DNA of 64,000 nucleotides from Bolinopsis microptera. Taxonomy: Eukaryota; Ctenophora; Tentaculata; Lobata; Bolinopsidae. Below are positions 11,226-35,735 of this stretch, piece by piece. The notes beneath the pieces are model-generated. The model saw only the letters and a program-made list of their open reading frames with translations. It did not search any database and was not told the DNA's origin. Both the position numbers and the translations under genes were made by a program. The DNA lies in the NCBI RefSeq assembly GCF_026151205.1, contig NC_087081.1, positions 13,930,340 to 13,994,339 on the forward strand, read 5' to 3'. The first letter of the stretch is position 1; every line of letters begins with the position of its first letter.

Positions 11226-12922
11226 TATTGAGAGATGAAAAAGAGGAGAGGAGGAGGGGGACTGAGGAGGGGGACTGAGGAGGAAGAGGAGGGGGGACTG
11301 AGGAGGAGGACTGGTGAAGAGGACTGATGAGGAGGAGGACTGAGAAGTAGGAGTAGGGGGAGGACTGAGGTGGGGAGGACTTAGGAGGAAGAGGAGAATT
11401 GAGGAGGAGGAGGAATGAGGAGTAGAAAGAGGAAGAGGACTGAGGAGGATCAGGAGGACCCAGGAGGAGGAGGAAGAGGAGGAGGACTGATGAGGAGAAG
11501 GAGGACTGAGAAGGAGGACTGAGAAGGAGAAGGAGGACTGATGAGGAGGATGAGGATGAGGAGGAGGGTGACTGGGGGAGGACTGAGGAGGAGGAAAAGG
11601 AGAAGGGATGAGGAGGAGAAGGACTGAGGAGAAGGAAGAGGAGGAGGACTGAGGAGGACCCAGGAGGAGGAGGACCCAGGAAAAGGCCCCAGGAGGAGGA
11701 TGATGACTGGGGAGGAGGAGGACTGATGAGGACTGATGACGAGGACTGAGGACGAGGAGGAGGAGGAGGAGGACTAAGGAGGAGGACTGAGGAGGACTGA
11801 TGAGGAGGAGAAGGAAGTGGATGAAGAGGATGAGGAGGACTGAGGAGGAGGAGGACCCAGGAAAAGGCCCCAGGAGGAGGATGATGACTGGGGAGGAGGA
11901 GGACTGATGAGGACTGATGACGAGGACTGAGGACGAGGAGGAGGAGGAGGAGGACTAAGGAGGAGGACTGAGGAGGACTGATGAGGAGGAGAAGGAAGTG
12001 GATGAAGAGGATGAGGAGGACTGAGGAGGAGGACTGGTGAAGAGAAGGAGGAGGACCCAGGAGGAGAAAGAGGAGGAGGATAACTGAGGAGGAGAAGAGG
12101 GATCCAGGAGGAGAACCCAGGAGGAGGAGGAGGAGGACTGAGGAGGAGGACCAAGGAGGAGGGTGACTAGCGAAAGGACTGAGGAGGACTGAGGATGTGA
12201 AGGAGGACTGAGGAGGAGGAACCAGGAAAAGGAGGAGGAGGAGGAGGAGAAGGACTGAGGAGGAGAAGGAGGAGGACGTAGGAAGAGGAGGACCCAGGAG
12301 GAGGACTCAGGAGGAGAAGGAGGAGGAGGAGGAGGAGGACTGAGGAGGAGGACTGAGGAGGAGGAGGACTGTGGAGTATTGAGGAGGATGGCTGAGGAGG
12401 ATGGCTGAGGAGGATGACTGAGGAAGATGACTGAGAGGGAGGAGGATGAGGACTGAGAAGGAGGAGGACTGAGGAGTACTGAGGAGGATGGCTGAGGAGG
12501 GGGACTGGGGGAGGACTGAGGAGGAGGAGGACTGACGAGAAGGATGAGGAGGAGGACTGAGAAGGAGGACTGAGGATTGAGGAGTAAGAGGAGGAGGATG
12601 AAGAGGAGGAGGACCCAGGAGGAGGAGGAGGACTCAGGAGGACTGAGGAGGAGGATGAGAACTGAGGAGGAGGAGGAGGACTGAGGAGGATGGCTGAGGA
12701 GAATGGCTGAAGAGGATGACTGAGAGGGAAGAGGAGGAGGAGGAGGACTGAGGAGGAGGAGGAGGAGGAACTAGGAGGAGGACCCAGCCGGAGGACTCAG
12801 GAGGAGGAAGAGGACTCAGGAGGAGGACTGAGGAGGACTGAGAAGGAGGAGGACTAAGGGGAACTGAGGAGGATGAGGAGGAGGACTGAATAGGAGGAGG
12901 AGGAGGGGGACTGGGGGAGGAC

Positions 12923-12951
<29 letters not shown>
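11226..12951 (+). repeat. Imperfect AGG (purine) satellite with GACTGAGGAGG units
   Basis: About 1.7 kb of GGA/GAGGA repeats punctuated by GACTGAGGAGGA and GACCCAGGAGG. A higher-order repeat of about 181 bp is visible: the block with GACCCAGGAAAAGGCCCCAG starts near 11673 and again near 11854. Almost pure purine on one strand. Long Pro/Ser/Leu open frames on the minus strand are by-products. Confidence 0.95.
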
Positions 12952-12955
<4 letters not shown>

Positions 12956-13081
12956 TAAATGTTATTTCCATTTTTGTTATTTTTTGTCCGTTTTTGTCCG
13001 CTCTATTTTTTGTCCGTTTTGAAAATATATGGTTCCGAACGGAAAAAACGGATAAAAAACGTGACCCCCCCCCCCCCCCCC
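12952..13081. repeat. Hairpin module, copy 2, with C-run
   Basis: Begins with GCATCTAAATGTTATTTCCA after the AGG array, as copy 3 does. It carries two TTTTTGTCCG units, a diverged spacer (AATATATGGTTCCG), two degraded CGGAAAAAA units and a run of about 18 C (13064-13081). Confidence 0.8.
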
Positions 13082-13787
13082 AGGAGGAAGAGGAGGACTG
13101 AGGAGGAGGACTGAGGAGGACTGAGAAGGAGGAGGACTGAGGAGTACTGAGGAGGATGGCTGAGGAGGATGGCTGAGGAGGATGACTGAGGAGGAGGACT
13201 GAGAGGGAGGAGGAGGAGGACTGAGGGGGAGGAGGAGGAGGACCCAGGAGGAGGACTCAGGAGAAAGAGGAGGAGGAGGACTCATAAGGAGGAATGAGAA
13301 GGTGGAGAACTGAGGAGGAGGAGGAGGAGGACTGAATAGGAGGAGGACTGAATAAGAGGAGGAGGGGGACTGGGGGAGGACTGAGGAGGAGGAGGACTGA
13401 CGAGAAGGATGAGGAGGACTGAAGAGGACTGAGGAGAAGGATGAGGAGGAGGACTGAGGAGGAGGACAGAGGAGAAGGACTGAGGACTGAGGAGGAAGAG
13501 GAGGAGGATGAAGAGGAGGAGGATGAAGAGGAGGAGGAGGTCCCAGGAGGAGAAGGAGGACTGAAGAGGACTGAGGAGAAGGATGAGGAGGAGGACTGAG
13601 GAGGAGGACTCAGAAGGAGGAGGACCCAGGAGGAGGACTGAGGAGGAGGAGGATGACTGAGGAGGAGGAGGAGGAGGAGGAGGAGGAGGAGGAGGAGGAG
13701 GAGGAGGAGGAGGAGGAGGAGGAGGAGGAGGAGGAGGAGGAGGAGGAGGAGGAGGAGGAGGAGGAGGAGGAGGAGGAGGAGGAGGAG

Positions 13788-13813
<26 letters not shown>
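13082..13813 (+). repeat. Second AGG satellite ending in pure (AGG)n
   Basis: Same family as 11226-12951. The last 150 bp (about 13659-13812) are uninterrupted AGG triplets. The poly-Leu, poly-Pro and poly-Glu open frames here are translations of the microsatellite. Confidence 0.95.
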
Positions 13814-15219: not shown

Positions 15220-18200
15220 GGTGTGCCAAGGAAAATCAAGTGGTATCAAACAAAAGTTGTACAGTAACAAACATTGGCGGATTTTTGAAAAATTTGTGTT
15301 TTGATGAGAGTATAAAAGATTACTTTCACTTGTGCGCTTATTCGAACGTTACCTATGTAATGGGTACTGAGAATCATACACTCCCAAGTGTCTCCTCTGT
15401 GTGTGACAATGACCCGTATGTTTATCAGGCGTGTGGTTTTGATACAAAAACAACAAAACAAAGTGACATCGGCCTCTGCAGTGGAGGTCCTACTGACAAC
15501 AGCACCAACATTACATGCGATGACAAATGTGATTGGTATGACTGTAGAGATGAGCAACATTGTGGTGGTTACACATACAGAATTTCCTGTCATAATCTAA
15601 ATGGTGAACCAGGCCCTCCCGTTTATTGGTTTCAGGTTTGTAATGGAATTAAAGATTGTCATCCTTACGGGGAGGATGAGAGGGACTGTGATGTTAAGAG
15701 CACCACACAACACACCTGTATTCATTACGGCAAGAAACACTGGGATAAAATTAACAAGAAAGTCCCCATACATAAATACAATAGGTGTAGTGTGTTTGAT
15801 ATTAATGTGCCTCACAACTTTCCGTACTGTTACGATTATCTAGACCAGACAAACTGCAGTGATGTGAACAAAGTGGGAGGTAACTGTTTGGTCAATGATT
15901 ATATGTCAAGCGTATCAAAGTACGTGGTCTGTGGTAGCGAATTTAAGCTTACCAATAAACCGGTTAATTTATGTGACGATAACCTAGAAGACAACTGTAC
16001 TTCACTACCTCAACCTGGGTTCGCTGATGACTGTGTCGTCCACAAGCACAGACTTTGCGATGGAGTTAGTGACTGTGTTGGTAGTAGTGATGAGACCCTT
16101 GATATATGTCAGTACACAACGTTGGGTTATTTGAATTGCAGAAGAGGCTTTAATGCTGATAAAAACATGCCAATACCTGTCAAATGGTTACTGGATGATC
16201 AAACAGATTGTCTGGATGGAGAAGATGAAAAAAGAAACCTTAAGGTGACATACTGTAAAGAAATAAATGAAGGTACTGAAAGAATAAATTTAGGAAACAA
16301 AACATGTCAGGACGTTTTTCTGTGTCCAGGAGATTCCAAGATTAGTTATGTTGAGTTTGACGCTCTTTGTGATGGTATAAACTCTTGTGAAGTTGAAAAT
16401 GATATCTGTACGATTTCAAGAGATTTCCCGAGCATCAATGCATCTGCTGTTATCAACAGTTGTAATGTGCGAGATTTGTGCGAATCAATGGAACAATCCA
16501 AAAATTTAACTTGTCATGTTCAAGAATTTCAGAGTCCAGCAGGAAATACATTTGGTGTAAAAATGATGATAAATGTCCCAACTTCAAAGACACAAGTTGA
16601 CTGCAGTATTCGATATGGTGAATATTATGTCTTCTTGAGTTGCATGGGTTTATGTCTAAACTCCACTTGTCCTCTTCAGAACACTCCCCTAGACTATGAT
16701 TCATGCCCCGGTCAGTATCCTGACCGAATCAACACTCTCGCTAACAATTCTGCTCTAACATTTGTGACTATGTCTGATGAAGGTGAATATGAAAATGCAC
16801 ATTTCCAGTGTGATAACAAAAAGTGTGTTCATTATAGCCAAGTTTGTAACCTGGTTGATGACTGTGGTGACTTGTCAGATGAACGACTTTGTACAAACCA
16901 TTTAGTTTGTGAGGATACTAAAAACCGGAAAAAACAGGACCTAATATCTTATTCCCAAAGGTGCGATGGTAAATTTGACTGCTTTGATTTATCTGATGAA
17001 TGCAATCAGTCATGTGGCAAGGAAATCTTAGCCAATTGGGTATTGAAACTTAGTTGCTGGCTGCTGGGCCTTTTGGCATCCATTTTTAATGTCGTCATGG
17101 TGGCCAAAGTTGGAAGTTCCATAAGAGAATCTGAATCAGGTAGTTTGCTGTGCACTAGAGTGCTGATCTGTTTAATCGGATTAGGCGATTTACTTATAGG
17201 AGTCTACTTGATCGTATTGTCCGTATTCGACAGTATCATTTTAGGAGAGGATTACTGTGCAAAGCAAGCAGAATGGTTATCAGGCACTGCTTGTTCTGTT
17301 TTGGGAGTGATCAGCACTACGGGATCGCAACTTTCTCTATTTTCGATGACTGCTTTGAGTTTGATTAGGATGAGGGGAATCGTGAATAAATCTATGATTG
17401 CTCCTACCCGCGTCAATAAAAAAGCAGTAATAAAAGCTGCCATGATTGTGATCGGAATCGTTACTGCTTCTCTATCAGTGGCACTCATACCATTGGTCCC
17501 CGCCTTAGAGGACTACTTTGTGCAAGGTTTGTTCTATGACCGAGACTACAAGCTATTTATTGGTTTTCCGAACAAAATAAAGCACGTCAAGATTCTCCAA
17601 GCATATTACAAAAATGAGAGTTTCTCTAGAGATACATCCTGGACTGATATTGGCGAAAAAGTAGATGCAATGTTCAGTCATATTAAGAGTTATGGAAGTG
17701 GAAGCTTGAATAAAAGTGCTGTTCACTTTTACGGCAATGATGGTGTGTGCCTTTTTAAATACTTCGTTCGAAGTGATGACCCTAGAAGAAGCCGAACGAT
17801 ATCAGATGCGGAAGAGGACTTGATCGACGTGAAAGGAAATATGATAGTTTGGCTCATGCTAGGTGTAAACCTATGTTGTTTTCTGTTCATTACCGTGTCC
17901 TACTTGTTGATCAACATTAAATCCCGGCAATCATCGAGGAATTCTGGGCAAAACAGCAATCCAGAAACTGTCCGCAGAAACCGAGCAATGCAAAACAGGA
18001 TTGCACTGGTCATAGCCACAGATTTCGCTTGTTGGGTTCCATTCATAATCATCAGCGGGCTCCACAATCTCGAGTCAATCGATGCTACAGATTGGTACCT
18101 CACTTTTGCAATGATAGTTTTACCCCTCAATTCTGTCGTAAACCCTATGCTGTATGACAATACTTTGAGAGAATTTTTTAGTGAGATTTTTACTTTGCTT

Positions 18201-18368
18201 TACTTTACTGTCCAAAGTGTTGCTGTTAGATTTCAAAATGGTGGTAGATTAAGAGCAATTAAAGAGGCTCCAGAAGAAACGCAAATTGTAGAAATGGGAG
18301 GTGATATTGACAAGGGAATGTCACTTGTGGCACCTGCCGACGAGGGTATCATGGAAACACCAATTTAG
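15220..18368 (+). CDS. LDLa-repeat G protein-coupled receptor (RXFP/GRL101-like 7TM), main 3' exon
   Basis: The frame is open from 15141 and runs to a stop at 18366-18368. It has no good ATG start: a splice acceptor (ATCTTTCAG|G at 15219/15220) shows that the first exon, probably with the signal peptide, lies upstream and was not found. Counting residues from the GTG codon at 15240, the ectodomain (about 1-595) is Cys-rich with roughly seven LDL receptor class A modules (for example CDGVSDCVGSSDE, CNLVDDCGDLSDERLC, CDGKFDCFDLSDEC). Seven hydrophobic segments follow near 600-622, 634-662, 680-711, 730-754, 868-894, 920-945 and 954-977. TM6 TDFACWVPF and TM7 LPLNSVVNPMLY match relaxin-receptor/GRL101-type rhodopsin GPCRs, but no leucine-rich repeats are present. 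The second extracellular loop is unusually long (about 110 residues). The TM3 end reads ALSLIRMRG, not DRY. Expected at the plasma membrane; ligand unknown. Confidence 0.9.
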
Positions 18369-21120: not shown

Positions 21121-21951
21121 TAGAACAAGTAATGAACAAAACCTTGACAGTTAGCCATATTTCACCCTCCATCAAAAGACAGAATCTGAAAGGGTAGGTG
21201 GAGTCTACCAGTACCATCGTGCATCGACATGATTCGGTGGTTAGATAGGAAGTACCTGACCCCAACAACCAGAGCTAGAGAAACTAATTTTCGACGTCTT
21301 GACCCACTGTACTCAGGCCACTCCCAGTCCCAGGGACAATTCGAAAATATTTTTAAGGGATTTGAAATCCGTGTCAAATCCCCTACAAAATCCCCTACAA
21401 AATTCAGAGAAACGTCTTCAACTACTCGGAATTGTAACGCGCAATTTAATAATTTGTAGACAAAGTAGCGCACCGCGAACCACGCAGAATATCAATTGTA
21501 TCTTCAAGTATTTCAAACTCTGTTGACAAAATAAATTGATTGTGACTCTAATAATTGATTAAAAATTACGGCATACAGCAAATCTTGTGTTGTGTGTAAA
21601 AAAACTGTGATAAACAATATGCTGTAAATAAAACAAATTCGTCAAAAAGTTTAAAAACACGATGACCCGCCCAATTTTCTGAAGTGACAATTTGGGGACT
21701 TTGACGGGCTATAACTTTCGCTAGGCTAATAATATGGTGGGTTTTGAGACATAAAATGTTCACCCGCAAGTTGACGCTCTTCACCTAGCCACGAGTCTAC
21801 GCGTACTGCGTGACGTGCTTGTTTCACTAGAGGGCTCTGGATAGAGCAACGCTCGTAGACAGTAGAGTTAGTACATACACTAATACCCCTTTTAGGTTTA
21901 ATGGTTATTTTTTAGGTTTAATGGTTATTAGTTAAATGACGATGTCAATTC
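21121..21951. other. Intergenic sequence before LINE-A
   Basis: No gene is recognised. ATCCCCTACAAA is tandemly duplicated near 21377. A GGGCTCTGGATAGAGCAA block near 21833 recurs inverted near 29838. TTTTAGGTTTAATGGTTATT is duplicated at about 21890-21930. The sequence ends in the presumed left target duplication of LINE-A (TGACGATGTCAATTC, 21937-21951). Confidence 0.5.
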
Positions 21952-23082
21952 TTTGCAGCATATTTTCTGACTGAGTGCAAAGAAACTGGTAAGTTCAGCC
22001 AGATGAACGGAAGGTCAGTCCTTAAATATGGAGAAAGCTACACATACTCTGGAGACACAAACGCCCCCTCCTCTCCAGCCATCCCACCACCATTAGCAGC
22101 TGCTATTGATAGAGTCACCTCCCAGTGCAAACTTACACACAAGCCTAACTCTGTGCTCATAAACTACTTCCCTCCTAGCACTGGGGTTGAGGAAAGCATG
22201 TTACCCTTCCACTGTGACGATGAGCAAGAAATACTTGCTGACTCCGAAATAGCCACAATTTCAATAGGAGAAGTAAGAAAGATAAGCTTTGTACCTGTCC
22301 ATGAAGGCCATTCACCTACAAAAATGACTGAAATGTCCCTGGAATCCAACTCGGCCTATATTATGACTCGTTCCTCACAAGCTTGGTTCAAGCATGGAAT
22401 CAAGGCCACCCAAAAAACTGAAGTCAACCCGGCCATGTACGGACGATTTTCCATTACCCTTAGAGCCATTAACAACAAATTCAAAAGAAGCACGCTCATT
22501 ATGGGAGATTCGAACACCAAAACAATCAAGTTTGGGTGTGGTGCTGGTACTATGGGCCAGTCTTTCCCTGGTGAAAGAGTCAAGGCAGGTAAAGTCAGTT
22601 TGATTGACCCTTGTCGCTGCATTGGGTACAGCAACGTTGTTATCGTTTGTGGTACCAATGACCTCCGGGTAGAAAACCTTAGAGGAGAGAATGAAATCCA
22701 TCAGCTGGTTGACGTTCTCCACTTGAAGATTCAACAGATAAGAAAGCTCTGCCCAAGTATCAAAATATTTGTCGCAGCAGTCCTCCCATCAAGATTGCCT
22801 CAAATGAACAAAAACATTATGACCTTCAATCGGCTTGTTGGAGAAATGTTAAGTGCCAACTTCAACCAGAGTGTGTGGCACCTTGGAGTTGGCCACTTCT
22901 TAGATAGTAGGGGACTCCTTGCCACCAACCTGACCAGAGGTGGTGATGATATTCATTTAGGAGTTTATGGTATTACCAAATTTGTGAGATGTGTGAAGCA
23001 TTGGGTGTATGTGAGAGAGAGGCAAGAGCGGACAAGACGTGGAAAACACAACCAGTCAGTGGGGTCTAACAACCCCACTTAG
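21952..23082 (+). CDS. LINE-A ORF1: AlkB-like 2OG-Fe(II) dioxygenase fused to SGNH/GDSL esterase (N-terminus lost)
   Basis: The first ATG is at 22003, but the frame is open to the element's left edge and the upstream residues (TECKETGKFSQ) still fit the AlkB fold, so the true N-terminus is missing. Counting from that ATG (359 residues): AlkB part about 1-160, with YGESYTYSG, the iron-binding H70-x-D72 (FHCDDE), distal H131 (WFKHGI) and the 2-oxoglutarate-binding R148-x5-R154 (RFSITLR). All expected metal and cosubstrate residues are present. SGNH hydrolase part about 163-335, with GDS at 168-170, GTND at 217-220 and D315-x-x-H318 (DDIH). Esterase domains are known in ORF1 of CR1-type LINEs. 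An AlkB domain, best known for repair of alkylated DNA or RNA, is to my knowledge unusual there. The stop precedes the ORF2 ATG by five bases. Confidence 0.85.
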   Translation, partial: FAAYFLTECKETGKFSQMNGRSVLKYGESYTYSGDTNAPSSPAIPPPLAAAIDRVTSQCKLTHKPNSVLINYFPPSTGVEESMLPFHCDDEQEILADSEIATISIGEVRKISFVPVHEGHSPTKMTEMSLESNSAYIMTRSSQAWFKHGIKATQKTEVNPAMYGRFSITLRAINNKFKRSTLIMGDSNTKTIKFGCGAGTMGQSFPGERVKAGKVSLIDPCRCIGYSNVVIVCGTNDLRVENLRGENEIHQLVDVLHLKIQQIRKLCPSIKIFVAAVLPSRLPQMNKNIMTFNRLVGEMLSANFNQSVWHLGVGHFLDSRGLLATNLTRGGDDIHLGVYGITKFVRCVKHWVYVRERQERTRRGKHNQSVGSNNPT

Positions 23083-23087
23083 TAAAA

Positions 23088-23490
23088 ATGATTATGAAAA
23101 TGATTAAAGATGTGTGTGAGCCATGTAGTAGATCTATTAACATCGGACAACCTTTACTAGAGTGTGAAAACTGTAATAATGCCATCCATACTAAGTGTTT
23201 CAAATCAGCTAAATACTCATGCAAAAATGGACTATGGATGTGCTGCGAGTGTGCCAGTTCTGCAGAGGAACGGTACTGCCCATTTCCATCTGATGAGGAA
23301 TCTATAGATTCTGATAGATTCTATGATAATAGAAACCAGGAAGATGCCTTAATTGCATCATATGCCCTTGTACTTGAACGTTGCCGTCGCTACTCTAAAC
23401 TCGAGTTCTTAAATGCAATCAAGCAGCTCAATTCCTCAAAAAAATCTACGTTATCAACTTTATTCTACAATATAGATGGAAACGCATCTA
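23088..23490 (+). CDS. LINE-A ORF2, N-terminal part (PHD-type zinc finger), interrupted by insertion
   Basis: The ORF starts at ATG 23088 just after ORF1. Residues 8-55 hold a Cys/His cluster C-x2-C...C-x2-C...H-x2-C...C-x2-C (CEPC, CENC, HTKC, CCEC), as in PHD fingers, which in other LINEs precede the endonuclease. About 80 linker residues end in FYNIDGNAS, where the nested element enters at the target AAACGCATCTA (23480-23490). The native frame resumes at 25677 as NFDSFLIEL. The few codons beyond 23490 (a Met-Tyr-Val-Cys repeat) come from the (TATG)n end of the insert. Confidence 0.8.
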
Positions 23491-25665
23491 TGTATGTATG
23501 TATGTATGTATTTTGACACGGGGCAGCGCTAGACCCCATGTAGTGCCCTCAACCTACTTTTAGATTTGAAGGTCATAAAGGCGACAACAATGCCAAGAGG
23601 ACAGCGCAAGCCGGTGAGCTGTACACTGGGCACGCGCGCGTAATAATAAAGCTCAAACAGGTAATAGACCCCGCGAGCATATAGAATCAGGATTTTACAG
23701 GATGTGGGCAGCCGGCCCTGTGAAGGTGATGGATGCGTGCAAATCTGAGGGCTTGAAGCGAGTGTATTGTGGAGCTAGCGTACTCTGATAAGTGAAGTAG
23801 CCCGAACCAGGTAGCTCACCTGCTCCGCATCGCGGGGGGCCGCTCCAGTTTACAGATGTACATGCGGAGATATGTCGACGCTCGTGAGTGAATGGGGAAT
23901 AGCTGATTTGTGCGAAGGTAATGTGTGGGTTATGATGGTGCTGTTACTTTATAAGTTCTAAGCTTGTAGAATGTGTTGCAAAAACCATCCTAATTGAGGT
24001 TTATTGGTTGGCGTATATAGTGAACTAGTGGGGTTTGACGATGGAAGAGCGCTAAGATAATTTTGGGAATGTAGTATGGGCAGTGACAGATTCAAGGTTG
24101 ATGGAGATAATTAAAACAACGAATATAACTGCAATTGTAAAAAGTAATAGCAAATATTTGTAAGTGAATCTCGATTGTTTGTGAATCCTCTTTATCGACA
24201 CTAGGCAGAGTATGATGCTGAGGCGAAGTTCGGGACTGATCTGGTATCATCTTCCTTGAGTTTACTAATCAGATCAACCTGGAGTGATGGAACGTTTCAA
24301 TTATGTGGATTTGTCGTAATCTCGTGGATTAGTCGTAAGCTCGCGCGCGCGCAGGCTCGCGCGCGCACTAAATTTTCTGTTTAAAAAATGACGACTATTA
24401 GGTTGCTACGTCCTTGAGTTGTATGGCGTTCGCGCGTTACGTTTAATGCGGGAAATTTGAAGGACGGATTTAACCGGTTTGAGTAACTGGATTTGATTGA
24501 AGTTGTGTTTGGTGGAGCAAGGCGGTAGGTTCGTTTTTTAGGGGTGATTAGTGGGAGTGTTCTAACCTGGTGGTGGTGGAGGAACTGCTAATACCGGATG
24601 AAGGGGTACCCTGGAGGCAGTGATTGGATCTCTACTGGTTTGGAGAGTGGGAGTCCTTTATTTAGGTTGTCTGATGAATATCTGTGTCAAGTCGTCAATC
24701 TGGAATAACTCGAGTTTTAGTAATTTATAAAGTGGGCTGTAACATTGCGTTCCAGCCCTGAGAGGGAAAATAAACTAGTAAGAAGATGTAATTATTGGAA
24801 AATTGATGCAGATTACATTTATTGACTGATCAGAACAAGGAATAATGTTATGTGGAGTCCAACTTGTAGTTATTCATCTCATGTGATGGTTTAGCGAAGA
24901 TTTCTGGATCGGAGTAGTATGATGCAGATATCAGATTTCGTAGTGCTGATCCATTGTGTCGATGTACTGTTGCTTAAACTGGTTTCCACGTATGTATGTC
25001 ACAAGGGTAGCCGGGGTACTCGAATCCTAACTAGATCTCTAGCTTTGTGTTCGCCGTAGAGTGGAGAGTGGATATCCATAGTGCTGTGTACCTGTGTAGG
25101 GTTGAAATTCCAAGGTTGCTGAAATGATGATGGTGTTAGAGAAAGACGCAAGGTGTAACATGCGTTACACCGTGGTAAGAAAGGCATTATGGTAGCAGAG
25201 AATGCATTATGACAGGAGAATGAGCGAAAGTAATGCAAATGAAAAAAAGGACCGAATTGACGAGGTGATTGAGTGAGTGAGATGCTGCATTGCTACTGGC
25301 TGACTCGCCAGCAACAATGCAAGTCCAAGAAGAAAGAAGGAGAGACACTGTCCGTTATCTGGGTGAGCCACCACCGACAGTGCTCCCACTTATGTGGGGC
25401 TGAGGGTGTTGGCTCCAAGAACCAGCCGTGAGCGAACAGCGCCTGTCCCCCTCTATGGTTAACTTGAGAGTAACAGGACTATGCCATTCTCCAGGCCAAT
25501 CCGTTCAATAACCAGCTGACCCAGCACCACCTCTGATGGAAGATGTGGTTCGGATTGGACTTCGCTAGGATTTGTCAGTTTTTCTGTAGACACTAATGCT
25601 CCCTCGAGGAAAGACATGAGCCCCGGCGAAACTGACCAAAAACGTGGCAGGGATTCTCACCCTAC
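23491..25665 (-). mobile_element. Nested 2.2-kb retroelement-like insertion in LINE-A ORF2
   Basis: The insert is bracketed by the 11-bp direct repeat AAACGCATCTA (23480-23490 and 25666-25676). Its left edge is (TGTA)n, so on the minus strand it ends in an (ACAT)n tail, as retroposed elements do. The minus-strand 5' end starts at GTAGGGTGAGAATCCCTGCC. I find no RT, endonuclease or transposase; the longest minus-strand frames (79 and 60 codons) show no motif. A CG-rich alternating block (GCGCGCGC) lies near 24340-24365. It is probably a non-autonomous retroelement or a LINE with most of its coding part deleted. Confidence 0.8.
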
Positions 25666-25676
25666 AAACGCATCTA

Positions 25677-28639
25677 ACTTTGATAGCTTCCTAATTGAAC
25701 TCAAAAGTATAGGGCACTCGTTTGATATGATTGGTCTTGCTGAAACCAATACTGATCCTGCACAGCAGGGCCTGTACCAAATTCCATCATACACAGGATT
25801 CTATCAAGAAACATTGGCAGGTAAGAAAAAAGGCACAGGTGTTGCACTCTATGTATCTGACCATTTAAATACTGTGGTCTTAGAAAACGTATCACACTGT
25901 ACTACAAATATTGAGAGCCTCTTTGTTGAAACCACAGATAGCGCAGGCAGCAAAATTGTTCATGGAGTCATTTACCGACCCCCTAATGGCTGCTTTGATA
26001 GCTTTTGTGAAACCCTGGAACTACTTGCAAAGCAGCTAAATGGGAAAACTGTCAATTTGTTGGGAGACTTTAACTCAAACATACTTAATATTTCTACCAG
26101 TTCCCAGCTCTTTGAGGATACTTTATACAGAAACGGCTTTTACCCGACTATCTCCATTGCAACACATTTTCGTCAAAACTGTAAAAGTTCCTGCATCGAT
26201 AACATTTTAACAAATAAAATTGAGAATATAGTCTTATCAGGTGTTATTGAAGAACGGCTTGGTGAGCATGCCCCTATATTTACCTTCACTTCAGTAGAGA
26301 CCCCTCGCAGTACAGAGCCTCAGAAACATGTCCGCTATTATGATTACTCAAGTTCCAAATTGAAAAGCTTTGTAACTGAACTTGAGGTAAAGGTAAACCA
26401 GCTCACTCCTTCAACAAAATTTGATGAGTTTACGGCATGTTTTGACCAGACACTTGACAAACACTGCAAACTGGAGGTACCGAAAGTGACAAAAAGAACT
26501 CCCAAACTTAACCCATGGATTACAGACAGTATCATCCAGTCTGTAGAAAGAAAGCATGAACTACGTAAGGAGTGGTCTGACACCGTTACCAATAAGAACC
26601 CTGGTGGTAATATCTTGCTATACCAAGTATTTAGTGATTATCGTAGGATGCTCAAAGCTATCATTAAAGCTGCCAAACGTTGGCATTACTGTAACGAAAT
26701 TCTAAACAACTGTGAAAACAGCAAGAAAACCTGGCAAATTATTAACGAACTCAGAGGCAAAAAGAAGAGGCAAACCAAGCCCCCATTTATCATTGATAAC
26801 CAAAGAATAGTTGATAGAAGAGCAATTGCTAATGGATTCAATGCTTGGTTTGTCTCTATTGCACCAAAGCTGAATGAGACACTGAATAATCTATCTAATG
26901 GCCTGCCTATATTACCCATGAAAACTTTCTATGACTTCCTGAACCCAAGAAATGAAAAAAATATTAGGTTAGAAGATTGCTCCTCGAACGAAATATTGAA
27001 AATCATAAGAGAGTTCGAAAATGGTAAAGCCAGTGACATTCCCATAAGTGTAATAAAAAAGTCATCTCATGTAATTGCACCTGTATTATCGAATTACTTC
27101 AATATCCTTATGACCCAAGGTATATTTCCTGATGTCCTGAAAACTGGTAAAATAACACCTGTATATAAGAAAGGTAACCCAGAAGAAATCGAGAACTACC
27201 GTCCTATCTCCACACTGTCCGTCTTCGGTAAGATCTTTGAAAAGCTCATATATTCTAGAATATACGGATTTGTTAGCTCCCAGGGAGTTATATCGAAGAC
27301 ACAGTTTGGATTTAGGAAATCTCACTCTACATCTCATGCAGTCAATTACTCTGTAGATTTAATTACGAAATCTCTTAAACTTAAGAATCATGTTTTAGGA
27401 ATATTCATTGACCTTAGCAAAGCTTTTGACACCATCGATCATTCAACACTTCTTATAAAATTAGAGGGATGTGGAGTGAGAGGAGTTGCAAATAACCTCA
27501 TAAAAAGCTACTTAACAAACAGGCAACAATACACTGAAGTTGTAGGAGAAAAATCAGATACCCTATCTATTCAATTTGGTGTCCCACAGGGTTCAATTCT
27601 TGGACCTCTCCTATTTCTTCTTTATATGAACGACATCACAAACAGTTCTAAACTAGGATCATTTGTTACCTTTGCTGATGATACTAATATATTTGTTGTC
27701 GGCAAAACAAAACGTGAGGCATATGAACGAGGAAATGAGCTTTTGTCATCATTACAGTCTTATATGAGAGCGAATAAGTTACATATAAACATGTCCAAGT
27801 GCTGCTACATACACTTCAAACCCAACATGGCAGGTTCTAAGTCAGAGATTTTATCACACCCTGAACCTGTACTAACTATAGACAACTATCCAATCAAAAA
27901 GGTTTCATCCGCAAAATTTCTGGGTGTTATAATTGACGAGAACCTATCATGGGAAGATCACATTAAAGCTCTTAAGCGAACCCTAAATCATTCCACATCC
28001 ACTTTATGTAGACTTCGCTGCTCCCTTCCAGAATTTCTACATCAACAATTATATTATACTCTGTTCGAATCACATCTTTCCTACTGTATATCTGTATGGG
28101 GTGGGGCAGCTAAGCAACGTATAAGCTCAATATTTACTGCTCAGAAGTACTGTCTCAGAGTACTATTTGGTGATAGGCTGGCGTACCTTGATAAGTTTAA
28201 GACTTGTGCACGTACTAGGCCTATAGGACACCAGAAACTTGACCAAAAATTGTTCATAAAAGAACACACCAAACCGATATTCAAGCATAATAATATTCTA
28301 GCTATACAAAATCTCTATACATACCACAGTTACCTCGAGCTCTACAAGATAATGAAATTCCGTGCTCCAATATCCCTATATGAGGGTTACACATGTTCGT
28401 CGAGGAAACCCTGCCTTCTTATCTGTCAGGTAGACCCACCTGACAACCACAACACTAGATCAACCAAAATTTTTAACATTTTAACCCCAAAGTTCAGAAT
28501 GACTGACTTCACTACTAGTGTAATGTGCTTGCGAGGAAAGCTAAAACGTGCGCTATTAGCCAATCAGCATAACCACGCCCTGCTTGATTGGACCGTGAAA
28601 GATTTTGACTGCACAAATATTATTTTCCAAACATTATAA
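25677..28639 (+). CDS. LINE-A ORF2, endonuclease and reverse transcriptase part
   Basis: Continuation of ORF2 after the nested insert. The upstream ATG at 25616 is inside the insert and is not the native start. The AP-like endonuclease (first 220 or so residues) has LAETNT, YRPPNG and NLLGDFNSN. The usual SDH motif reads GEH here (RLGEHAPIF), which may affect catalysis. The RT follows, with PVYKKGN...NYRPIS, FIDLSKAFDTIDH, QFGVPQGSILGPLLF, the catalytic FADDTNIF and FLGVIIDENLSW. A C-terminal region with YCISVWGG and a basic tail ends at 28639. No internal stop or frameshift is present. The product would be the target-primed reverse transcription enzyme. Confidence 0.92.
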
Positions 28640-29373
28640 CTGGCTGTTCACACACATCTCAATTAAATTCCTCTAGGCTACTGTTTTCCAAGTCTTGTCC
28701 TGTGAGTAAAGAATGTGTGAGAAGGTATTAATAAAATAAATGTATATTTTTTGAATTTTTAAATCTAATCTGAGAATGAAGTATAAAGAAATTTTTAATT
28801 AGCACTGTATAGTTTAAGATATTTATAGCTTATTATAACCATTGATACAAAGGCCATAATCTTTCGCAAGCTCTTTAATATACACCTTGAAGCCACATTT
28901 TATATCCTTGAACCACACAATATAAACTAAAGCATGTTTTAGTGTAGACTTTTTGTCACAACAAGACTGCAACCTATAGTAACAACTATAAACAGAACCC
29001 CTAATGTCTACTAACAAATTTCTTCTAGTCCTAAAATGAGCCCTGTCTCTAAAAACCTAACTGAACTAGCGTTTCGGTGTGTGCAAAAGCTTTCAGGCAC
29101 GCGCATTCCTTGCCCCGTTAGTTACCTGTCCTTCCAAAACCAAACTAGCAGTCAAGGACAAAAAGTCATACACCAAATGGGCATTATATTTTATGAATTG
29201 TTTTACATCTTTTTATTCTGTAAAATGTGCTAAAATTAAATTTCTTGTTTCATTGAATTTCTTGTTTCATTGATCTCTGATATTTGGGATACGAAACATG
29301 TATCAAGTAATTGATTGATATGTAATATTTAGACCCGTGGCCAGTTTTCACAATTGCTAGTGGCAGTGTTAAT
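28640..29373 (+). other. LINE-A 3' untranslated region
   Basis: Untranslated tail between the ORF2 stop and the right target duplication. AATTTCTTGTTTCATTGA is duplicated near 29239-29273. No poly-A or simple-repeat tail is clear; the end reads CTAGTGGCAGTGTTAAT. A minus-strand open frame at 28823-29017 has no recognisable motif. Confidence 0.6.
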
Positions 29374-29388
29374 TGACGATGTCAATTC

Positions 29389-30107
29389 ATGGCAGCTCGG
29401 CGCGGCATAGTTAGTAGCGCATTTTGCCGATCCACGATCTAGCCAGAGAAGCCCTATTGAGTGCGCGGCGCGGCACAGTAACGCATCGCGCTACAAGTGG
29501 CAGTGCTATATAATAAAGTTGTTGTATTTTTATCACATATCAAAAGTTTTAGAACTAAGCTATTTTGGTCCATTGTTGAACCAATTGATAATTGCGTAAA
29601 TCGGTCTTCATATTGTTTGTCGTCATTATTAATTTTGGTGTCAATGCTTTTGACCGTTTTTTGAACTTTTCGTGGACGCTTTTATCAATTTATCGAACTT
29701 TTTTTGCTCATGCTGCTACAGTTGCAGTATAACCAATAACACGTTGTAGTATTAATATGTTTACAGTACACTAAAATGCAGATGTACCAAAGGTTATATT
29801 AAAAAGATACTTGCTCTTTTGGCACTCATTTACCCAGACTTGCTCTATCCAGAGCCCTTGCGCTTGCAGTAGCGCGCGCCCGCCTCACGGCGGTAAAAAG
29901 GCTTTTCTTGACTTGTGAAACAAGCGCGCCCGCAGTGGCGCGAAAGCACATGGTTAGGTGAATACCCAGACAATATTTGTATCACGTGGTGACCCCCACT
30001 GTCACTTCGACGATACAGGGGGAGCCGCGCACTTCGTGCGCGGCGGGTTATACAACGTATGACAAGACAATATATAATAAGGTGTATGATTGAATCCAGC
30101 TCACTCC
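29389..30107. other. Repeat-rich spacer between LINE-A and minus-strand coding-like fragments
   Basis: Contains GC-rich GCGCGGCGCGGC blocks near 29398 and 29465, an inverted GCTCTATCCAGAGCCC block near 29840 shared with 21833, and the inverted R5 hairpin at 30015-30058. No gene is recognised. Confidence 0.45.
30015..30058 (-). repeat. GC-rich hairpin repeat R5, copy 2
   Basis: Complement of 19913-19957: GCCGCGCAC-TTC-GTGCGCGGC (30024-30044) followed by GGGTTATACAACGTA. The two copies face each other across LINE-A, about 10 kb apart. Confidence 0.65.
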
Positions 30108-30969: not shown

Positions 30970-33867
30970 TCAATCAAATGCTAGAGAAAAGAAGTATGTT
31001 TTAAGTTTGGTCTTGAAAGATGTAACTGACTCAGCTGATCTTATGTCGTATGGCAGGGAATTAAATACTTTAACTGCACAGTGACTAAAAGCTTTCTCTG
31101 TGTTTACATAGTTAGGAGAGGGCGGAAAACTAAGGTAAAAATAATCATTATCAAGACGTACATTTTTAAAACTTTGCTGCCTAGGAGATATCAACTCTTT
31201 TAAGTAAGGAGGAGCTATATTATTTAAACACTTGTAGGCAAGTAGGGCAATCTTAAAATCTATTCTAAATCTAACTGGTAGAAAATGAACTTTCTTAAGT
31301 AGTGGAGTAGTGTGTGCCTTTCTTCCTCTCCCGAAAATAAATCTTACAGCAGAATTTTGCACCTTCTGTAAACGACTTAAATCATAAGAGCTCAGTCCAA
31401 AATATACGCTATTGCAATAATCAATTCTAGAGAGTACTAGAGCATGAACAAGCTGAATCTTAAGGTTAAAAGACAGTTTTGATGCAATAAACCACAAATT
31501 TCTGATCTGAATATTACATGCTTGAACCACTGACGTAATCTGATCACTCATTGAAAGATAACTGTCCAAATACAGCCCAAGACTCTTCACAGTTCCACTA
31601 ACAACATGTGGCTCTTGATCCTTAACAATCTGTAGAGAGGCTGGAATATTTTTTGAGTCAAATTTAGAGGATATAACGATGACTTCAGTCTTAGAAGAAT
31701 TCAGTTGAAGGAAATTGTTTGTCATCCATTTCTTGATATCAGACATACAGTGTTCCATATTGTGCTCTAGCTGTGATGGGTCATCAGAATCAAGAGTGAA
31801 ATACAGCTGGGTGTCATCAGCATACAAATGAATACAGCACCCATGCATACTTGCAATGTTCTCAAGATCTTTGGTGTACAATATGAATAGCAGGGGGCCA
31901 AGGATTGAACCTTGTGGCACACCTATCTCAAGAACAGTTGATGAGGAAGACGAATCCTTGACTTTGACACAAAATGAACGGTTAGCCAAGTAGGACCTGA
32001 TCCATGTAAGAGCAATGCCTGTAATGCCATAAGCAGATCTTAGCTTCTTGATTAATCTTGGGTGATTGACAGTATCAAAGGCAGCACTCAAATCTAGAAG
32101 TAAAAGAACAACTTTAGTTTTCTTGTCAATAGTTATCAAGATGTCGTTATGGATTCTGGTTGTTGCAGTTTCACAGCTATGAAACTTCCTATAGCCGGAC
32201 TGAACTTTAGAAAGCAAGTTGTTATCCTCAAGATAACTGGTGAGCTGTATAGATACACACTTCTCAATGATTTTTGACAAGAATGAGAGATTGCTAATAG
32301 GCCTATAGTTAGATAGTAATTCACCGTCAAGGCCACGTTTCTTCAAACTTGGACGAATGAGAGCCTCCTTAAGTTTTATAGGAAACTCACCTTTAACTAA
32401 TGATTCATTGACTATAAATGAGATCAGAGGAAGGAGTTCTGGGAGACACTTGATGAGAATCTTTGTAGGTATGGGGTCAAGATCACAGAATTTGTTAGAC
32501 ATATTCTTTATGATGCTTACTAGTTCCTCATCAGACACATGACGGAATTGTACTATCTTTGGGCTATTAGAAAGAGGAACAGATTCATCTGAGTTAGGAG
32601 AATCTTCAAGGGATTGTTGTTCTAAATAAATGTTGTTGTATATGTTGTCGACCTTTGATTTAAAGAACTGTGCAAAGTTGTTAGCACTCTCAAGATTTGA
32701 AGAGCAAGAAGGTGTAGTAGTACTAACTTTTTCTTTATTGAGCAACTTATTAACGATGGAATAAGTCTTTTTAGCATCACCTGCACTATCTTGTAACCTT
32801 GTTTTGTAGAAGTGATCTCTTGTGGATACAATGACTGAGGATGCTCTCTCTGATGCTTTCCTGTACAGTCGTTTATAATCTGGGCAATCATGATTCTTTT
32901 GATACAGTCTCTCAATCTTTCTTCTCATTGCTTTTGCTTGTTGACAGTGTGTAGACCACCATTCAGCGTTATGATCTTTTCTTGGGATGAAAGTTTTTTC
33001 TTTAGCATGCTTGTCCAAAATACTGCTCAACTCAGACTCATAGATATCAACTGCACTATCGAGGTCATTGAAGCAATCAGTGTCACATAGTTTTGACTTA
33101 AGAATGTCCTCAACAAAAGCATCTAGGTCTATGCAAGCAATGTTTCTGTAAGTAATTGGTTCTAGAGTGCCTATGGGTGCTGGAGATACATTGCAATTAA
33201 AAGCAACAAAGTAGTGGTCAGACGATGTGCCAGAATCAGTAATGACAGGATCTAGAACTTCAATGCAATCGTGAGTAAAAGAACCATCCCTGGTAATTAC
33301 AAGATCTAATATGCCCCCATCTCTGTGTGTTGCAGCTGAAATTTGTTGCACCCACCCACAAGACTTAAGTAGTGAATTAAACCTTTGTGCAACTGAATCA
33401 TTTTCGTCTTCAATGTGGATATTAAAATCACCCATGATCAAGGGCTTTCCAGGTTTGTCTACTAAATCAACCAAGAGTTGCTCAAAGTCAGTTAGAAATT
33501 GGGGGATGTTAGCACTCTGAGATGTGGAGGTGCCAGAACGGTAAATTGAAACAATTCGTAGTATATCTCCAGAAGATGATTTGAAGGTACATTCACAAGA
33601 CTCAAACGTTTTGAATCGCTTGCACTTCTGAGGAGTCACTTTAAGACTTTTCTTATATAGAACAGCAACACCTCCTCCCCGCCCAGCTCTTGGCTGGCTA
33701 TGAATGGAATATCCAAGTTCTTTCATCTCAGAAAACTTAGCATTGTCATCTTTTCTCAGCCAAGTTTCTGTAGCACAGCAAATATCAGTATCAAAGTCTT
33801 CAAGCAATTGCATGACTCCAGCAGTTTTATTGCATATGGATCTGCAATTGAACAGGGCAAAGTTCAT
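30970..33867 (-). CDS. LINE-B ORF2: endonuclease-reverse transcriptase
   Basis: 965 residues. The endonuclease begins at the N-terminus (NFALFNCRSICNK), with the catalytic glutamate in CCATETWL, then GDFNIH and SSDHYFVAF, so its active site is complete. RT motifs follow: LSNYRPISNLSFLSKIIEK, LLLDLSAAFDTVNH, GVPQGSILGPLLFILY and the catalytic YADDTQLYF. The C-terminus has LSRIDYCNSVYFGLSSYDL, RLQKVQNSAVRFIFG and VRFRIDFKIALLAYKCLN, which is characteristic of the CR1/L2 group. No PHD finger is fused here; a PHD-like cluster is in ORF1 instead. Confidence 0.93.
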   Translation of the reverse strand: MNFALFNCRSICNKTAGVMQLLEDFDTDICCATETWLRKDDNAKFSEMKELGYSIHSQPRAGRGGGVAVLYKKSLKVTPQKCKRFKTFESCECTFKSSSGDILRIVSIYRSGTSTSQSANIPQFLTDFEQLLVDLVDKPGKPLIMGDFNIHIEDENDSVAQRFNSLLKSCGWVQQISAATHRDGGILDLVITRDGSFTHDCIEVLDPVITDSGTSSDHYFVAFNCNVSPAPIGTLEPITYRNIACIDLDAFVEDILKSKLCDTDCFNDLDSAVDIYESELSSILDKHAKEKTFIPRKDHNAEWWSTHCQQAKAMRRKIERLYQKNHDCPDYKRLYRKASERASSVIVSTRDHFYKTRLQDSAGDAKKTYSIVNKLLNKEKVSTTTPSCSSNLESANNFAQFFKSKVDNIYNNIYLEQQSLEDSPNSDESVPLSNSPKIVQFRHVSDEELVSIIKNMSNKFCDLDPIPTKILIKCLPELLPLISFIVNESLVKGEFPIKLKEALIRPSLKKRGLDGELLSNYRPISNLSFLSKIIEKCVSIQLTSYLEDNNLLSKVQSGYRKFHSCETATTRIHNDILITIDKKTKVVLLLLDLSAAFDTVNHPRLIKKLRSAYGITGIALTWIRSYLANRSFCVKVKDSSSSSTVLEIGVPQGSILGPLLFILYTKDLENIASMHGCCIHLYADDTQLYFTLDSDDPSQLEHNMEHCMSDIKKWMTNNFLQLNSSKTEVIVISSKFDSKNIPASLQIVKDQEPHVVSGTVKSLGLYLDSYLSMSDQITSVVQACNIQIRNLWFIASKLSFNLKIQLVHALVLSRIDYCNSVYFGLSSYDLSRLQKVQNSAVRFIFGRGRKAHTTPLLKKVHFLPVRFRIDFKIALLAYKCLNNIAPPYLKELISPRQQSFKNVRLDNDYFYLSFPPSPNYVNTEKAFSHCAVKVFNSLPYDIRSAESVTSFKTKLKTYFFSLAFD

Positions 33868-33896
33868 ACTCTGACATTCTGACTTAGAGTTTGTAG

Positions 33897-35735
33897 CTAG
33901 TTTTTTGAAGTAAGGATGTTTTGTTTATACCGATTCAATGCCTGTTGCATGATGGGGCACTGCTCTGAGCTGGAATGGTGAGTGTTACAATGAGATGAGA
34001 CTCTTGGATCTTTTGACAGACTGCAATTGCGACATCTATGTCTGCTAGGGTCTTCCTTGTAATGACAGTCTGATGTTCTATGCCTACCGCTGCAATACAT
34101 ACAAACCAGAGTTTCTTTCTCAGGACAATTTTGGGAAATATGGTGGAGCTTCTGACAATTATAGCACTGCTTGATGATGAATCTATCCTTTACAGGACAA
34201 GCACTATTCAGAATGAAGATTTTGCCGTCTCCTGTCAATAGGTTCCTAATCTGAGGAGAGACCTTGATCCCAGCAGTAGTGTACCTTAGTCCAACATTTA
34301 TGTACACAATTTCAAAGAAATGCTCATTATCTAGCAAGTGTTTAAGTCCAGGATTTTTCAAGGGAATAATATCTAGAAGAGCTTTTTTAGTCTGTAACCG
34401 GAAATCTTCAGCGGGCAAACCAGAGCGTTCAATGGTTTCGAATATCTGACTGGGAATATTAGACACAGTGACTTTAGGGAGAGCTTTCTGGGAAAGAGTG
34501 ATGTGAAAACCAAGTAATTTAATGACATCAGAGTTTTCAATAAGACTTTTAGCCTTCAGCCTATCAGATGAAGATGGAAAAACTAGCGTTATCTTCTTGT
34601 GTGAATCTAGTAGGCTAGTTTTCATAGCAATCAATCGTGTGTCATAGAGCAACTCAGATAGAACATCTGGAGCAGATGAAATATCAGCAGAAGGAAAGGG
34701 ACTATCTAGCACCAATATCTCTTTACTTTCCTTGCCAACTTGATTTATGTTAGCTGACACTTTTCTTGGCTGAGGAGAACTAGCACCACCTACAAGAGCT
34801 GCAGAAAAATTGCTGTAAGAGGACAGTGCACTTGGAGACCGGGATTGCAAGTTTTCTTTGTTAACATTAGAAACTTGCTCTTCCTGCAAATGTTCTGGAG
34901 CACATAGAGCAAGCTTGTCGACAATAATGCTATGCATTTCCTCACGAAATGATTCCAGAAGGGCAGAGTTGTTTGCCCTCATCAAATGCTCAACTTTGGA
35001 GAGAATATCAGGAGCTTCATCATCACCATTATCATGACTCATCACAGGGTTGGACTTAGGAGCATCTACCACAGATGGTACAGGTGGACCAGGTGGAGAA
35101 ACGTTTTTGGAAGAACGGGTGTCATCTACCAGTGAAATGCAATCTTCACATACGAATAGAAAATAACCCCAACGAGCTTGATCTGCAATCATAGGTCTCA
35201 CCTTAGCACGGAAGGTATTTGTACAAATGGAGTCAAGAAATTGAACACCGGTTTTTTTGCGACAAGCGGAGTGAAACATCCCATCACAGACATTACAGAT
35301 AATCGATTCATTCACAGTGTCATTACTCCCACACTGTTTACACGAGCCGTCTTCAAATACAGGAAGTATAACAGAGTTCTTCTTTGGCTTTAGAGTCTTC
35401 TTGAGCTTCTTACTGGCCAGGGCCTCGTGCCCCTTTTGGCCCGCCATTGACATTGCTTCCTCAATAAATGTATTTAATTGTAGTTGTGAAAATAGTTTCA
35501 CAAAAGGATGATAAGCACTCGGGTGTTGAAGGTTGCGAAACCCCAACTTGTAGCGAATACACTTGACGGATGTTACTCGGGCCAGATCATTAACAATGGT
35601 CAAGAATACACTAGTACCTGCATGAAATATGGGATAATTTAAAGTAAAATACAATTTTTTAAAAAGTAAAATACAATTTTTATTTTCCACAGAAGAATCA
35701 ATACATATTGAATTATAAATATCCGATAATTCCAT
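33897..35735 (-). CDS. LINE-B ORF1: PHD-like and zinc-knuckle nucleic-acid-binding protein
   Basis: The frame is open for 612 residues from 35735. The likelier start is the ATG at 35447 (MAGQKGHEALASKKLKK), since the first 95 residues look like translated leader. Counting from 35735, about 130-205 is a PHD-like cluster (CKQC, CNVC, HSAC, CEDC). The middle is a Ser-rich linker and then a folded RRM/transposase-22-like stretch (about 340-510). Three C-terminal zinc knuckles read CYNCQKLHHISQNC, CMYCSGRHRTSDC and CRNC...H...C. It probably binds the element's RNA in a ribonucleoprotein. The stop lies 29 bp before ORF2. Confidence 0.85.
   Translation of the reverse strand: MELSDIYNSICIDSSVENKNCILLFKKLYFTLNYPIFHAGTSVFLTIVNDLARVTSVKCIRYKLGFRNLQHPSAYHPFVKLFSQLQLNTFIEEAMSMAGQKGHEALASKKLKKTLKPKKNSVILPVFEDGSCKQCGSNDTVNESIICNVCDGMFHSACRKKTGVQFLDSICTNTFRAKVRPMIADQARWGYFLFVCEDCISLVDDTRSSKNVSPPGPPVPSVVDAPKSNPVMSHDNGDDEAPDILSKVEHLMRANNSALLESFREEMHSIIVDKLALCAPEHLQEEQVSNVNKENLQSRSPSALSSYSNFSAALVGGASSPQPRKVSANINQVGKESKEILVLDSPFPSADISSAPDVLSELLYDTRLIAMKTSLLDSHKKITLVFPSSSDRLKAKSLIENSDVIKLLGFHITLSQKALPKVTVSNIPSQIFETIERSGLPAEDFRLQTKKALLDIIPLKNPGLKHLLDNEHFFEIVYINVGLRYTTAGIKVSPQIRNLLTGDGKIFILNSACPVKDRFIIKQCYNCQKLHHISQNCPEKETLVCMYCSGRHRTSDCHYKEDPSRHRCRNCSLSKDPRVSSHCNTHHSSSEQCPIMQQALNRYKQNILTSKN

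What the first reader, a model, noticed from the sequence alone, without database searches (positions are those of the whole stretch)
21952..28639. Retrotransposon encoding an AlkB-like dioxygenase, an esterase and a PHD finger together with EN-RT
LINE-A ORF1 holds a full set of AlkB residues (H70-x-D72, H131, R148-x5-R154 counted from the ATG at 22003) directly joined to an SGNH hydrolase (GDS, GTND, DxxH). ORF2 starts five bases later with a PHD finger. Esterase and PHD domains are known in some LINE ORF1 or ORF2 proteins. An AlkB demethylase in a non-LTR element is, to my knowledge, not standard. It might protect element RNA or cDNA from alkylation or remove host methyl marks; that role is inference.
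Basis: partly seen in the sequence, partly recalled or inferred. Interest (0 to 1): 0.88.

Follow-up and report, generated by a model that had tools for sequence, protein, structure and literature searches.

The report
Jumping genes carrying an AlkB enzyme
A comb-jelly-like genome holds several families of LINE jumping genes, and even Helitrons, whose own proteins include an intact-looking AlkB nucleic-acid demethylase joined to an esterase; this suggests that some mobile elements carry their own tool for cleaning methyl damage off their genetic material.

Summary
Window 22003-23082 encodes an ALKBH2/3-type AlkB dioxygenase (PF13532, E 2.2e-17) joined to an SGNH hydrolase, followed five bases later by a PHD-EN-RT ORF2. 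The window copy is dead: it is 5'-truncated inside ORF1 and a 2.2-kb repeat splits ORF2.

Best reading: the AlkB part removes RT-blocking methyl lesions (m1A, m3C) from the element's single-stranded nucleic acid. That role is inferred. My paper searches found AlkB in an orchid Gypsy element and in viruses, not in a LINE or Helitron.

The parts
21962..29272 (+). LINE copy, 5'-truncated inside ORF1, 99.5-99.7% identical to a copy with open frames elsewhere in the genome
   Evidence: blastn against L045; 8 ORF1 copies at 99-100% protein identity over residues 1-359, window included
22003..23082 (+). ORF1 remnant (359 aa), equal to residues 360-718 of the 718-aa ORF1 of L045
22030..22464 (+). AlkB 2OG-Fe(II) dioxygenase domain (PF13532, ALKBH2/3-type), N-terminal strand and helix missing in this copy
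22480..22992 (+). SGNH hydrolase (esterase) domain: GDS, G, GTND, DxxH blocks (borders approximate)
23088..23489 (+). 5' part of ORF2: PHD-like finger and start of the endonuclease
23480..23489 (+). 10-bp duplication, left copy, of the nested insertion
23490..25665 (-). nested 2.2-kb dispersed repeat splitting ORF2; (ATGT)n at one end (strand inferred from that tail); 11 matches (window included) at 98-100% over all or nearly all of the 2146-bp query
25666..25675 (+). 10-bp duplication, right copy
25666..28639 (+). 3' part of ORF2: APE-type endonuclease and reverse transcriptase (RVT_1 at 27167-27934)
28640..29272 (+). 3' UTR ending in a short tandem tail (17-nt unit, 29235-29273)

Best explanation
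This is a dead copy of a young LINE family whose ORF1 protein is PHD, linker, AlkB, SGNH and whose ORF2 is PHD, endonuclease, reverse transcriptase. The AlkB part looks like a competent ALKBH2/3-type dioxygenase (by conservation and fold, not by assay). I infer that it rides on the element's own single-stranded nucleic acid and removes Watson-Crick-face methyl lesions (m1A, m3C), which would otherwise stop reverse transcription: a built-in template-cleaning enzyme that favours full-length insertion. The SGNH part may handle lipid contacts of the RNP, as proposed for ZfL2-1, and the PHD fingers may read chromatin; both roles are inferred from relatives. An AlkB lineage is shared by several LINE lineages and by Helitrons, whose single-stranded DNA stage (recalled) gives the same kind of substrate.
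Against: No activity, substrate, expression or RNA-binding data. The conserved acid does not tell m1A from m6A: the m6A eraser FTO has it too (Glu234), and a title implies that ALKBH2/3 and AlkB can demethylate m6A. In PMC12140624 the gain for intact tRNAs was modest. The SGNH partner is not explained by template repair. Three of 141 rows miss one catalytic residue. dN/dS could be used for one ORF1 pair only; four deeper pairs were saturated in most cells. The tree has five cellular rows, all ALKBH2/3-like, so bacterial, viral and other ALKBH donors are untested; its root is for drawing only; LINE A as one clade is not rejected (p-AU 0.133).
Confidence: 0.5

Rival explanations
1. The AlkB part is an m6A eraser that removes host RNA marks from the element transcript, so that m6A-based control misses it, as proposed for the orchid Gypsy element.
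For: The AlkB protein of an orchid Ty3/Gypsy element shows RNA binding and demethylase activity in vitro (PMC9289625, abstract and passages). The acid at HxDxE is also in FTO.
Against: Best matches are ALKBH2/3, not ALKBH5. For human L1, m6A promotes retrotransposition and ALKBH5 overexpression cut it about 4-fold, though FTO had no effect (PMC7873242, abstract and passages). Helitrons, DNA elements, carry the domain too.
Confidence: 0.2
2. The domain acts on DNA: it repairs single-stranded cDNA, flap or rolling-circle DNA during insertion, or removes 6mA at the target; RNA is not the substrate.
For: ALKBH2 (dsDNA/ssDNA) is the best PDB match; weaker profile match to a solved DNA N6-methyladenine demethylase (E 1.7e-5); Helitrons work through ssDNA (recalled).
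Against: ORF1 proteins are presumed to package element RNA (PMC3905857, abstract passage); no DNA-specific residue was tested; no 6mA data here.
Confidence: 0.15
3. AlkB and SGNH are kept mainly as non-catalytic binding modules (RNA binding, RNP packing), replacing the RRM or zinc knuckles of other ORF1s.
For: Esterase-type ORF1s in RepBase had no RRM (PMC3905857, passages); no RRM or CCHC family was listed for the ORF1s scanned here.
Against: AlkB iron and 2OG residues and the SGNH Ser, Gly, Asn and His are invariant across divergent lineages, and AlkB ones nearly so in the database, which binding alone would not demand.
Confidence: 0.1
4. A chance capture or host-gene fusion in a single copy, without function.
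For: The window copy itself is truncated and broken.
Against: 113 listed matches to the ORF1 in this genome, pairing with ORF2, database relatives, purifying selection.
Confidence: 0.01

Closest known systems
Esterase-type (type IV) ORF1 of CR1/L2 LINEs, e.g. zebrafish ZfL2-1
   Same: Two-ORF LINE with an SGNH hydrolase in ORF1; the profile matches a solved ORF1-encoded protein (4c1b, E 0.005; that it is the ZfL2-1 esterase is recalled).
   Different: In the passages seen these ORF1s are described with coiled coil plus esterase and no AlkB is mentioned (PMC3905857, PMC4120745). Here an AlkB dioxygenase precedes the esterase.
PHD-bearing LINEs of the CR1 and L2 lineages
   Same: PHD at the ORF1 N-terminus or at the start of ORF2 is known (PMC4120745, passages).
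   Different: Here both ORFs have a PHD-like finger, plus AlkB; 'alkb' and 'dioxygenase' do not occur in that paper's main text.
Orchid Ty3/Gypsy element with AlkB (Gypsy_Pa_2799)
   Same: A retroelement that encodes an AlkB-like demethylase (PMC9289625, passages).
   Different: LTR element, AlkB in a separate ORF, called ALKBH5-like and recent, orchids; no esterase or PHD mentioned in the passages seen.
AlkB domains of plant RNA viruses (mainly Flexiviridae)
   Same: A selfish RNA genome carrying an AlkB domain; proposed to repair methylated RNA (PMC544882, abstract and passages).
   Different: Viral polyprotein context, not a retroelement.
TRAS LINEs of Lepidoptera with a virus-derived RNA helicase
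   Same: A LINE that took up a foreign nucleic-acid enzyme and kept it (PMC5563155, abstract and passages).
   Different: Helicase in ORF2, not AlkB in ORF1; 'alkb' does not occur in that paper's main text.
Human ALKBH2 and ALKBH3
   Same: Fold, iron and 2OG ligands, HxDDE.
   Different: Host repair enzymes on another branch of the tree, not fused to an esterase.

Membership tests
AlkB (ALKBH) dioxygenases | Iron ligands HxD...H and 2OG arginine with R-x5-R | tested here: met
   Window residues 70/72/131/148/154; complete in 138 of 141 database rows that cover all five columns
AlkB (ALKBH) dioxygenases | Double-stranded beta-helix fold | tested here: met
AlkB (ALKBH) dioxygenases | Oxidative demethylation of nucleic acid | not testable with these tools
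   No assay data
Non-LTR retrotransposon (LINE) | ORF2 with APE-type endonuclease and reverse transcriptase | tested here: met
   L045 ORF2: RVT_1 E 1.5e-36; Exo_endo_phos E 5e-5, just under its cut-off
Non-LTR retrotransposon (LINE) | No long terminal repeats | tested here: met
   No direct repeat of 40 bases or more in the 10 kb of L045, which holds both ORFs and flanks
Non-LTR retrotransposon (LINE) | 5'-truncated copies | tested here: met
   Window copy, and six of the seven inspected ORF2 loci without an ORF1 match
Non-LTR retrotransposon (LINE) | Target-site duplication flush with the ends | tested here: inconclusive
   A 29-nt repeat at 90% (21931-21959 / 29368-29396) lies 95 nt beyond the 3' end found by alignment
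CR1/L2/Jockey group | RT placement among named reference clades | not testable with these tools
   No named RT references were at hand; the placement is recalled from general likeness
Esterase-type (IV) ORF1 | SGNH catalytic blocks in ORF1 | tested here: met
Helitron (L044, L053) | Helitron Rep-type domain and PIF1 helicase | tested here: met
   PF14214 E 4e-22 (L044) and 2e-23 (L053); PIF1 E 9e-22 in L044; no helicase match in L053, whose fetched stretch ends inside the ORF
Orchid AlkB Gypsy element | Long terminal repeats | tested here: not met
   None in L045; largest direct repeats in window 21700-29700 are about 30 nt

The most novel reading that the evidence does not exclude
AlkB plus SGNH is a trans-class 'nucleic-acid care' module of mobile elements: one AlkB lineage, specialised in transposons, is shared by at least three LINE lineages and was captured by Helitrons, and a second AlkB (LINE C) may have joined an esterase-like partner independently. 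These elements would carry their own repair of RT-blocking and replication-blocking methyl lesions.
Probability: 0.45. Interest if true: 0.92.

Novelty: new variant of a known kind. Interest (0 to 1): 0.83.

Why it matters
If true, some transposons have their own repair of alkylated template. That links two fields that rarely meet (alkylation repair and retrotransposition) and gives a direct test of what limits full-length LINE insertion. It also gives a case where RNA-copying and DNA-copying transposons share an accessory enzyme pair, and a natural AlkB that works together with a reverse transcriptase, which is what tRNA sequencing methods do by hand.

Tried and rejected
Rejected: one-off capture. 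Rejected: that ORF1 starts at 22003; L045 shows 359 more residues upstream.

Led nowhere: the search for related loci in viral contigs and genome contigs with A1 found no relative; this only says that no relative was found in IMG/VR and in the prokaryote set by two or one peptide patterns. Of the 154 database relatives only one carries an organism name (Mnemiopsis leidyi, P0020), so the taxonomic spread is open. Copy counts for LINE B and LINE C failed: those two genome searches did not complete. The 29-nt repeat around the element could not be settled as a target-site duplication; about 50 nt of the stretch between is a common dispersed repeat. dN/dS of the deeper pairs was saturated in most cells. 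Pfam listed no SGNH family for the LINE C ORF1 L052 or the lineage A ORF1 L051; for L051 the alignment shows the blocks, for L052 I judged by eye only. Two Foldseek searches and one VIA look were made with one model; the second structure job was not used.

Absence in print rests on searches in an open-licence library, judged from listings and from passages of the papers cited; Repbase reports and most subscription papers are not covered.

Mended: the SGNH claim for LINE C, the Helitron count, the number of searches behind the 141 rows, the meaning of the conserved acid.
Full report
WHAT IS IN THE WINDOW. ORF1 (22003-23082, 359 aa) matches PF13532 (AlkB type) with E 2.2e-17 and 64.3 bits against a cut-off of 31.2; the SGNH part is weak in this copy alone (E 0.007-0.01). 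The 142-aa frame at 23088 begins with a PHD-like finger (PHD E 0.0024; C1 domain E 3.8e-5; both under their cut-offs), and the 1007-aa frame at 25616 carries endonuclease and RT (RVT_1 E 6e-37).

THE COPY IS DEAD. Against a relative with open frames on another chromosome (L045), the window element is 99.5-99.7% identical and runs from 21962 to 29272. Its 5' end is cut inside ORF1: window residues 1-359 are residues 360-718 of the ORF1 of L045. ORF2 is split by a 2.2-kb dispersed repeat (23490-25665) with a 10-bp duplication on both sides. That repeat has 11 matches in this genome, window included, at 98-100% over all or nearly all of the 2146-bp query. The first 17 residues of the 1007-aa frame come from the insert; the near-identical copies match from residue 18 on. 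The missing ORF1 part includes the first strand and helix of the AlkB fold, so this copy's AlkB is unlikely to work.

THE FAMILY. L045 has ORF1 = PHD-like finger, linker, AlkB, SGNH (718 aa) and ORF2 = PHD-like finger, endonuclease, RT (1121 aa); the copies L031 (the same place as L045), L033, L035, L036 and L037 have ORF1 frames of 714-724 aa. The genome holds 113 listed matches to ORF1 (787 candidates, 113 scored, so a lower bound). Eight of these, window included, are at 99-100% over residues 1-359; further levels lie near 88, 83, 68, 64, 48 and 37%. A search with PF13532 gave 151 matches (150 of 587 candidates scored, host genes included); all listed rows but the last have no stop inside.

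IS ALKB A FIXED PART? Of 45 ORF2 matches (45 of 7577 candidates scored), 34 have an ORF1 match just upstream, 27 of them at exactly 402 or 427 nt. By my reading, 24 of the 34 start at query residue 1-3 and so span the AlkB part as far as the window copy does; the others are shortened or in pieces. Of the 11 without an ORF1 match I read the upstream 3 kb of seven: six lose homology at ORF2 residues 24-70 or at the last residues of ORF1, and one shows no match; for the other four the ORF2 match itself begins at query residue 53-166 and upstream was not read. No copy was seen that keeps ORF1 without AlkB.

OTHER ELEMENTS OF THE SAME GENOME. AlkB-SGNH ORF1s followed by EN-RT ORFs recur in LINE lineage B (L043, L048, L049, L061, L062; in L049 the RT frame lies on the other strand) and E (L063, L064, L065). 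Lineage C (L052; related ORF1s L017, L020, L027) has AlkB first and an SGNH-like C-terminus that I saw by eye; Pfam listed no SGNH there. ORF2 identity between lineages is about 21-32%, and A, B and E are separate groups in the RT tree (92/91, 98/98, 99/100). Helitron loci L044 and L053 carry SGNH, a proline-rich stretch, AlkB and then the Helitron Rep domain, with PIF1 helicase in L044. In one search (150 of 723 candidates scored) eleven rows match this Helitron AlkB at 72% or more, ten of them over the whole query. The other LINE in the window (30970-35735) has no AlkB match, so the domain is not in every LINE here.

SELECTION. For L045 vs L040 dN/dS (NG86) is 0.089 (AlkB), 0.113 (SGNH), 0.129 (PHD), 0.26 (linker) and 0.49 (N-terminal tail). 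Four deeper pairs were saturated in most cells and are not used.

TREES. With 31 AlkB domains, those of LINE A, B, E and Helitron lie on one side of a branch from human and host ALKBH2/3 plus LINE C (99/95.9). Helitron joins the LINE E member L064 (98/95), which suggests that a Helitron took the domain from a LINE of that kind. LINE A as one clade is not rejected (p-AU 0.133), and 'all TE including C' has 62/53 only; the root is for drawing only. An earlier tree without lineage E also put Helitron among LINE rows. Only ALKBH2/3-type cellular rows were available, so the donor is open. Host genes L001, L002 and L003 match ALKBH2, ALKBH3 and ALKBH3 best.

HOST. The genome has 264.65 Mb in 232 contigs, 13 of them of chromosome size by the contig lengths seen. 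Bolinopsis microptera is listed at 265 Mb with 13 chromosomes, but with 346 scaffolds (PMC11797021, passage); one database relative is named Mnemiopsis leidyi. A ctenophore near Bolinopsis is therefore likely; this is inference.

HOW IT MOST LIKELY WORKS. Shown: domain identities, order, conservation, fold, selection in one pair, pairing with ORF2. Inferred: activity and role. m1A, m3C, m1G and m22G interfere with common RTs; with the R2 RT of OTTR, m1A impedes copying, AlkB removes m1A and m3C, most 3' tRNA halves are captured better, and intact tRNAs change modestly (PMC12140624, passages; that R2 is a non-LTR element is recalled). A LINE must copy its RNA over kilobases from the 3' end, so a lesion in the template would truncate the insertion; an AlkB on the ORF1 protein could clear the template. 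Helitrons make single-stranded DNA (recalled), and ALKBH3 prefers single-stranded nucleic acids (PMC7835257, passage). The m6A-eraser alternative is weaker: for human L1, m6A helps and ALKBH5 suppresses, though FTO had no effect (PMC7873242, passages). The SGNH partner is not explained by this; for ZfL2-1 a lipid role is proposed (PMC3905857, passages).

WHAT IS KNOWN. Esterase and PHD in LINE ORFs are known. AlkB in an orchid Gypsy element is known, with demethylase activity in vitro (PMC9289625, abstract and passages), and in plant RNA viruses (PMC544882, abstract and passages). A virus-derived helicase in insect LINEs is known (PMC5563155, abstract and passages). In searches no paper on AlkB in a LINE or a Helitron showed in the listings; Repbase reports are outside that library.

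Noticed in passing
L044 (G000 C10:16873900-16882899) and L053 (C9:15866500-15873499): Helitrons whose giant ORF begins with SGNH, a proline-rich stretch and AlkB before the Rep domain (helicase seen in L044); AlkB nearest to that of a LINE (L064).
   Followed up: partly
L052, L017, L020, L027: A further LINE type (C) whose ORF1 has AlkB first and, by eye, an SGNH-like C-terminus; its AlkB groups with cellular ALKBH2/3, perhaps a second acquisition.
   Followed up: partly
window 30970-35735 (-): Another LINE with ORF1 (612 aa, weak PHD and CCHC matches) and EN-RT ORF2, no AlkB match.
   Followed up: partly
window 23490-25665: Young 2.2-kb repeat family, 11 matches (window included) at 98-100%, with (ATGT)n at one end and a 10-bp duplication; no long ORF listed in this copy.
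   Followed up: partly
window 29273-29396: 95 nt between the LINE 3' end and a 29-nt direct repeat of the left flank; about 50 nt of it is a common dispersed repeat.
   Followed up: partly
window 15240-18368 (+): 1042-aa frame with LDL-receptor class A repeats and a rhodopsin-type GPCR domain.
   Followed up: no
window 11243-13813: Long degenerate GAG-rich low-complexity array, with TTTTTGTCCG repeats at both ends and poly-G before it.
   Followed up: no
window 53434-54342: 61-bp tandem array (15 copies, 96%) with a 352-aa frame across it.
   Followed up: no
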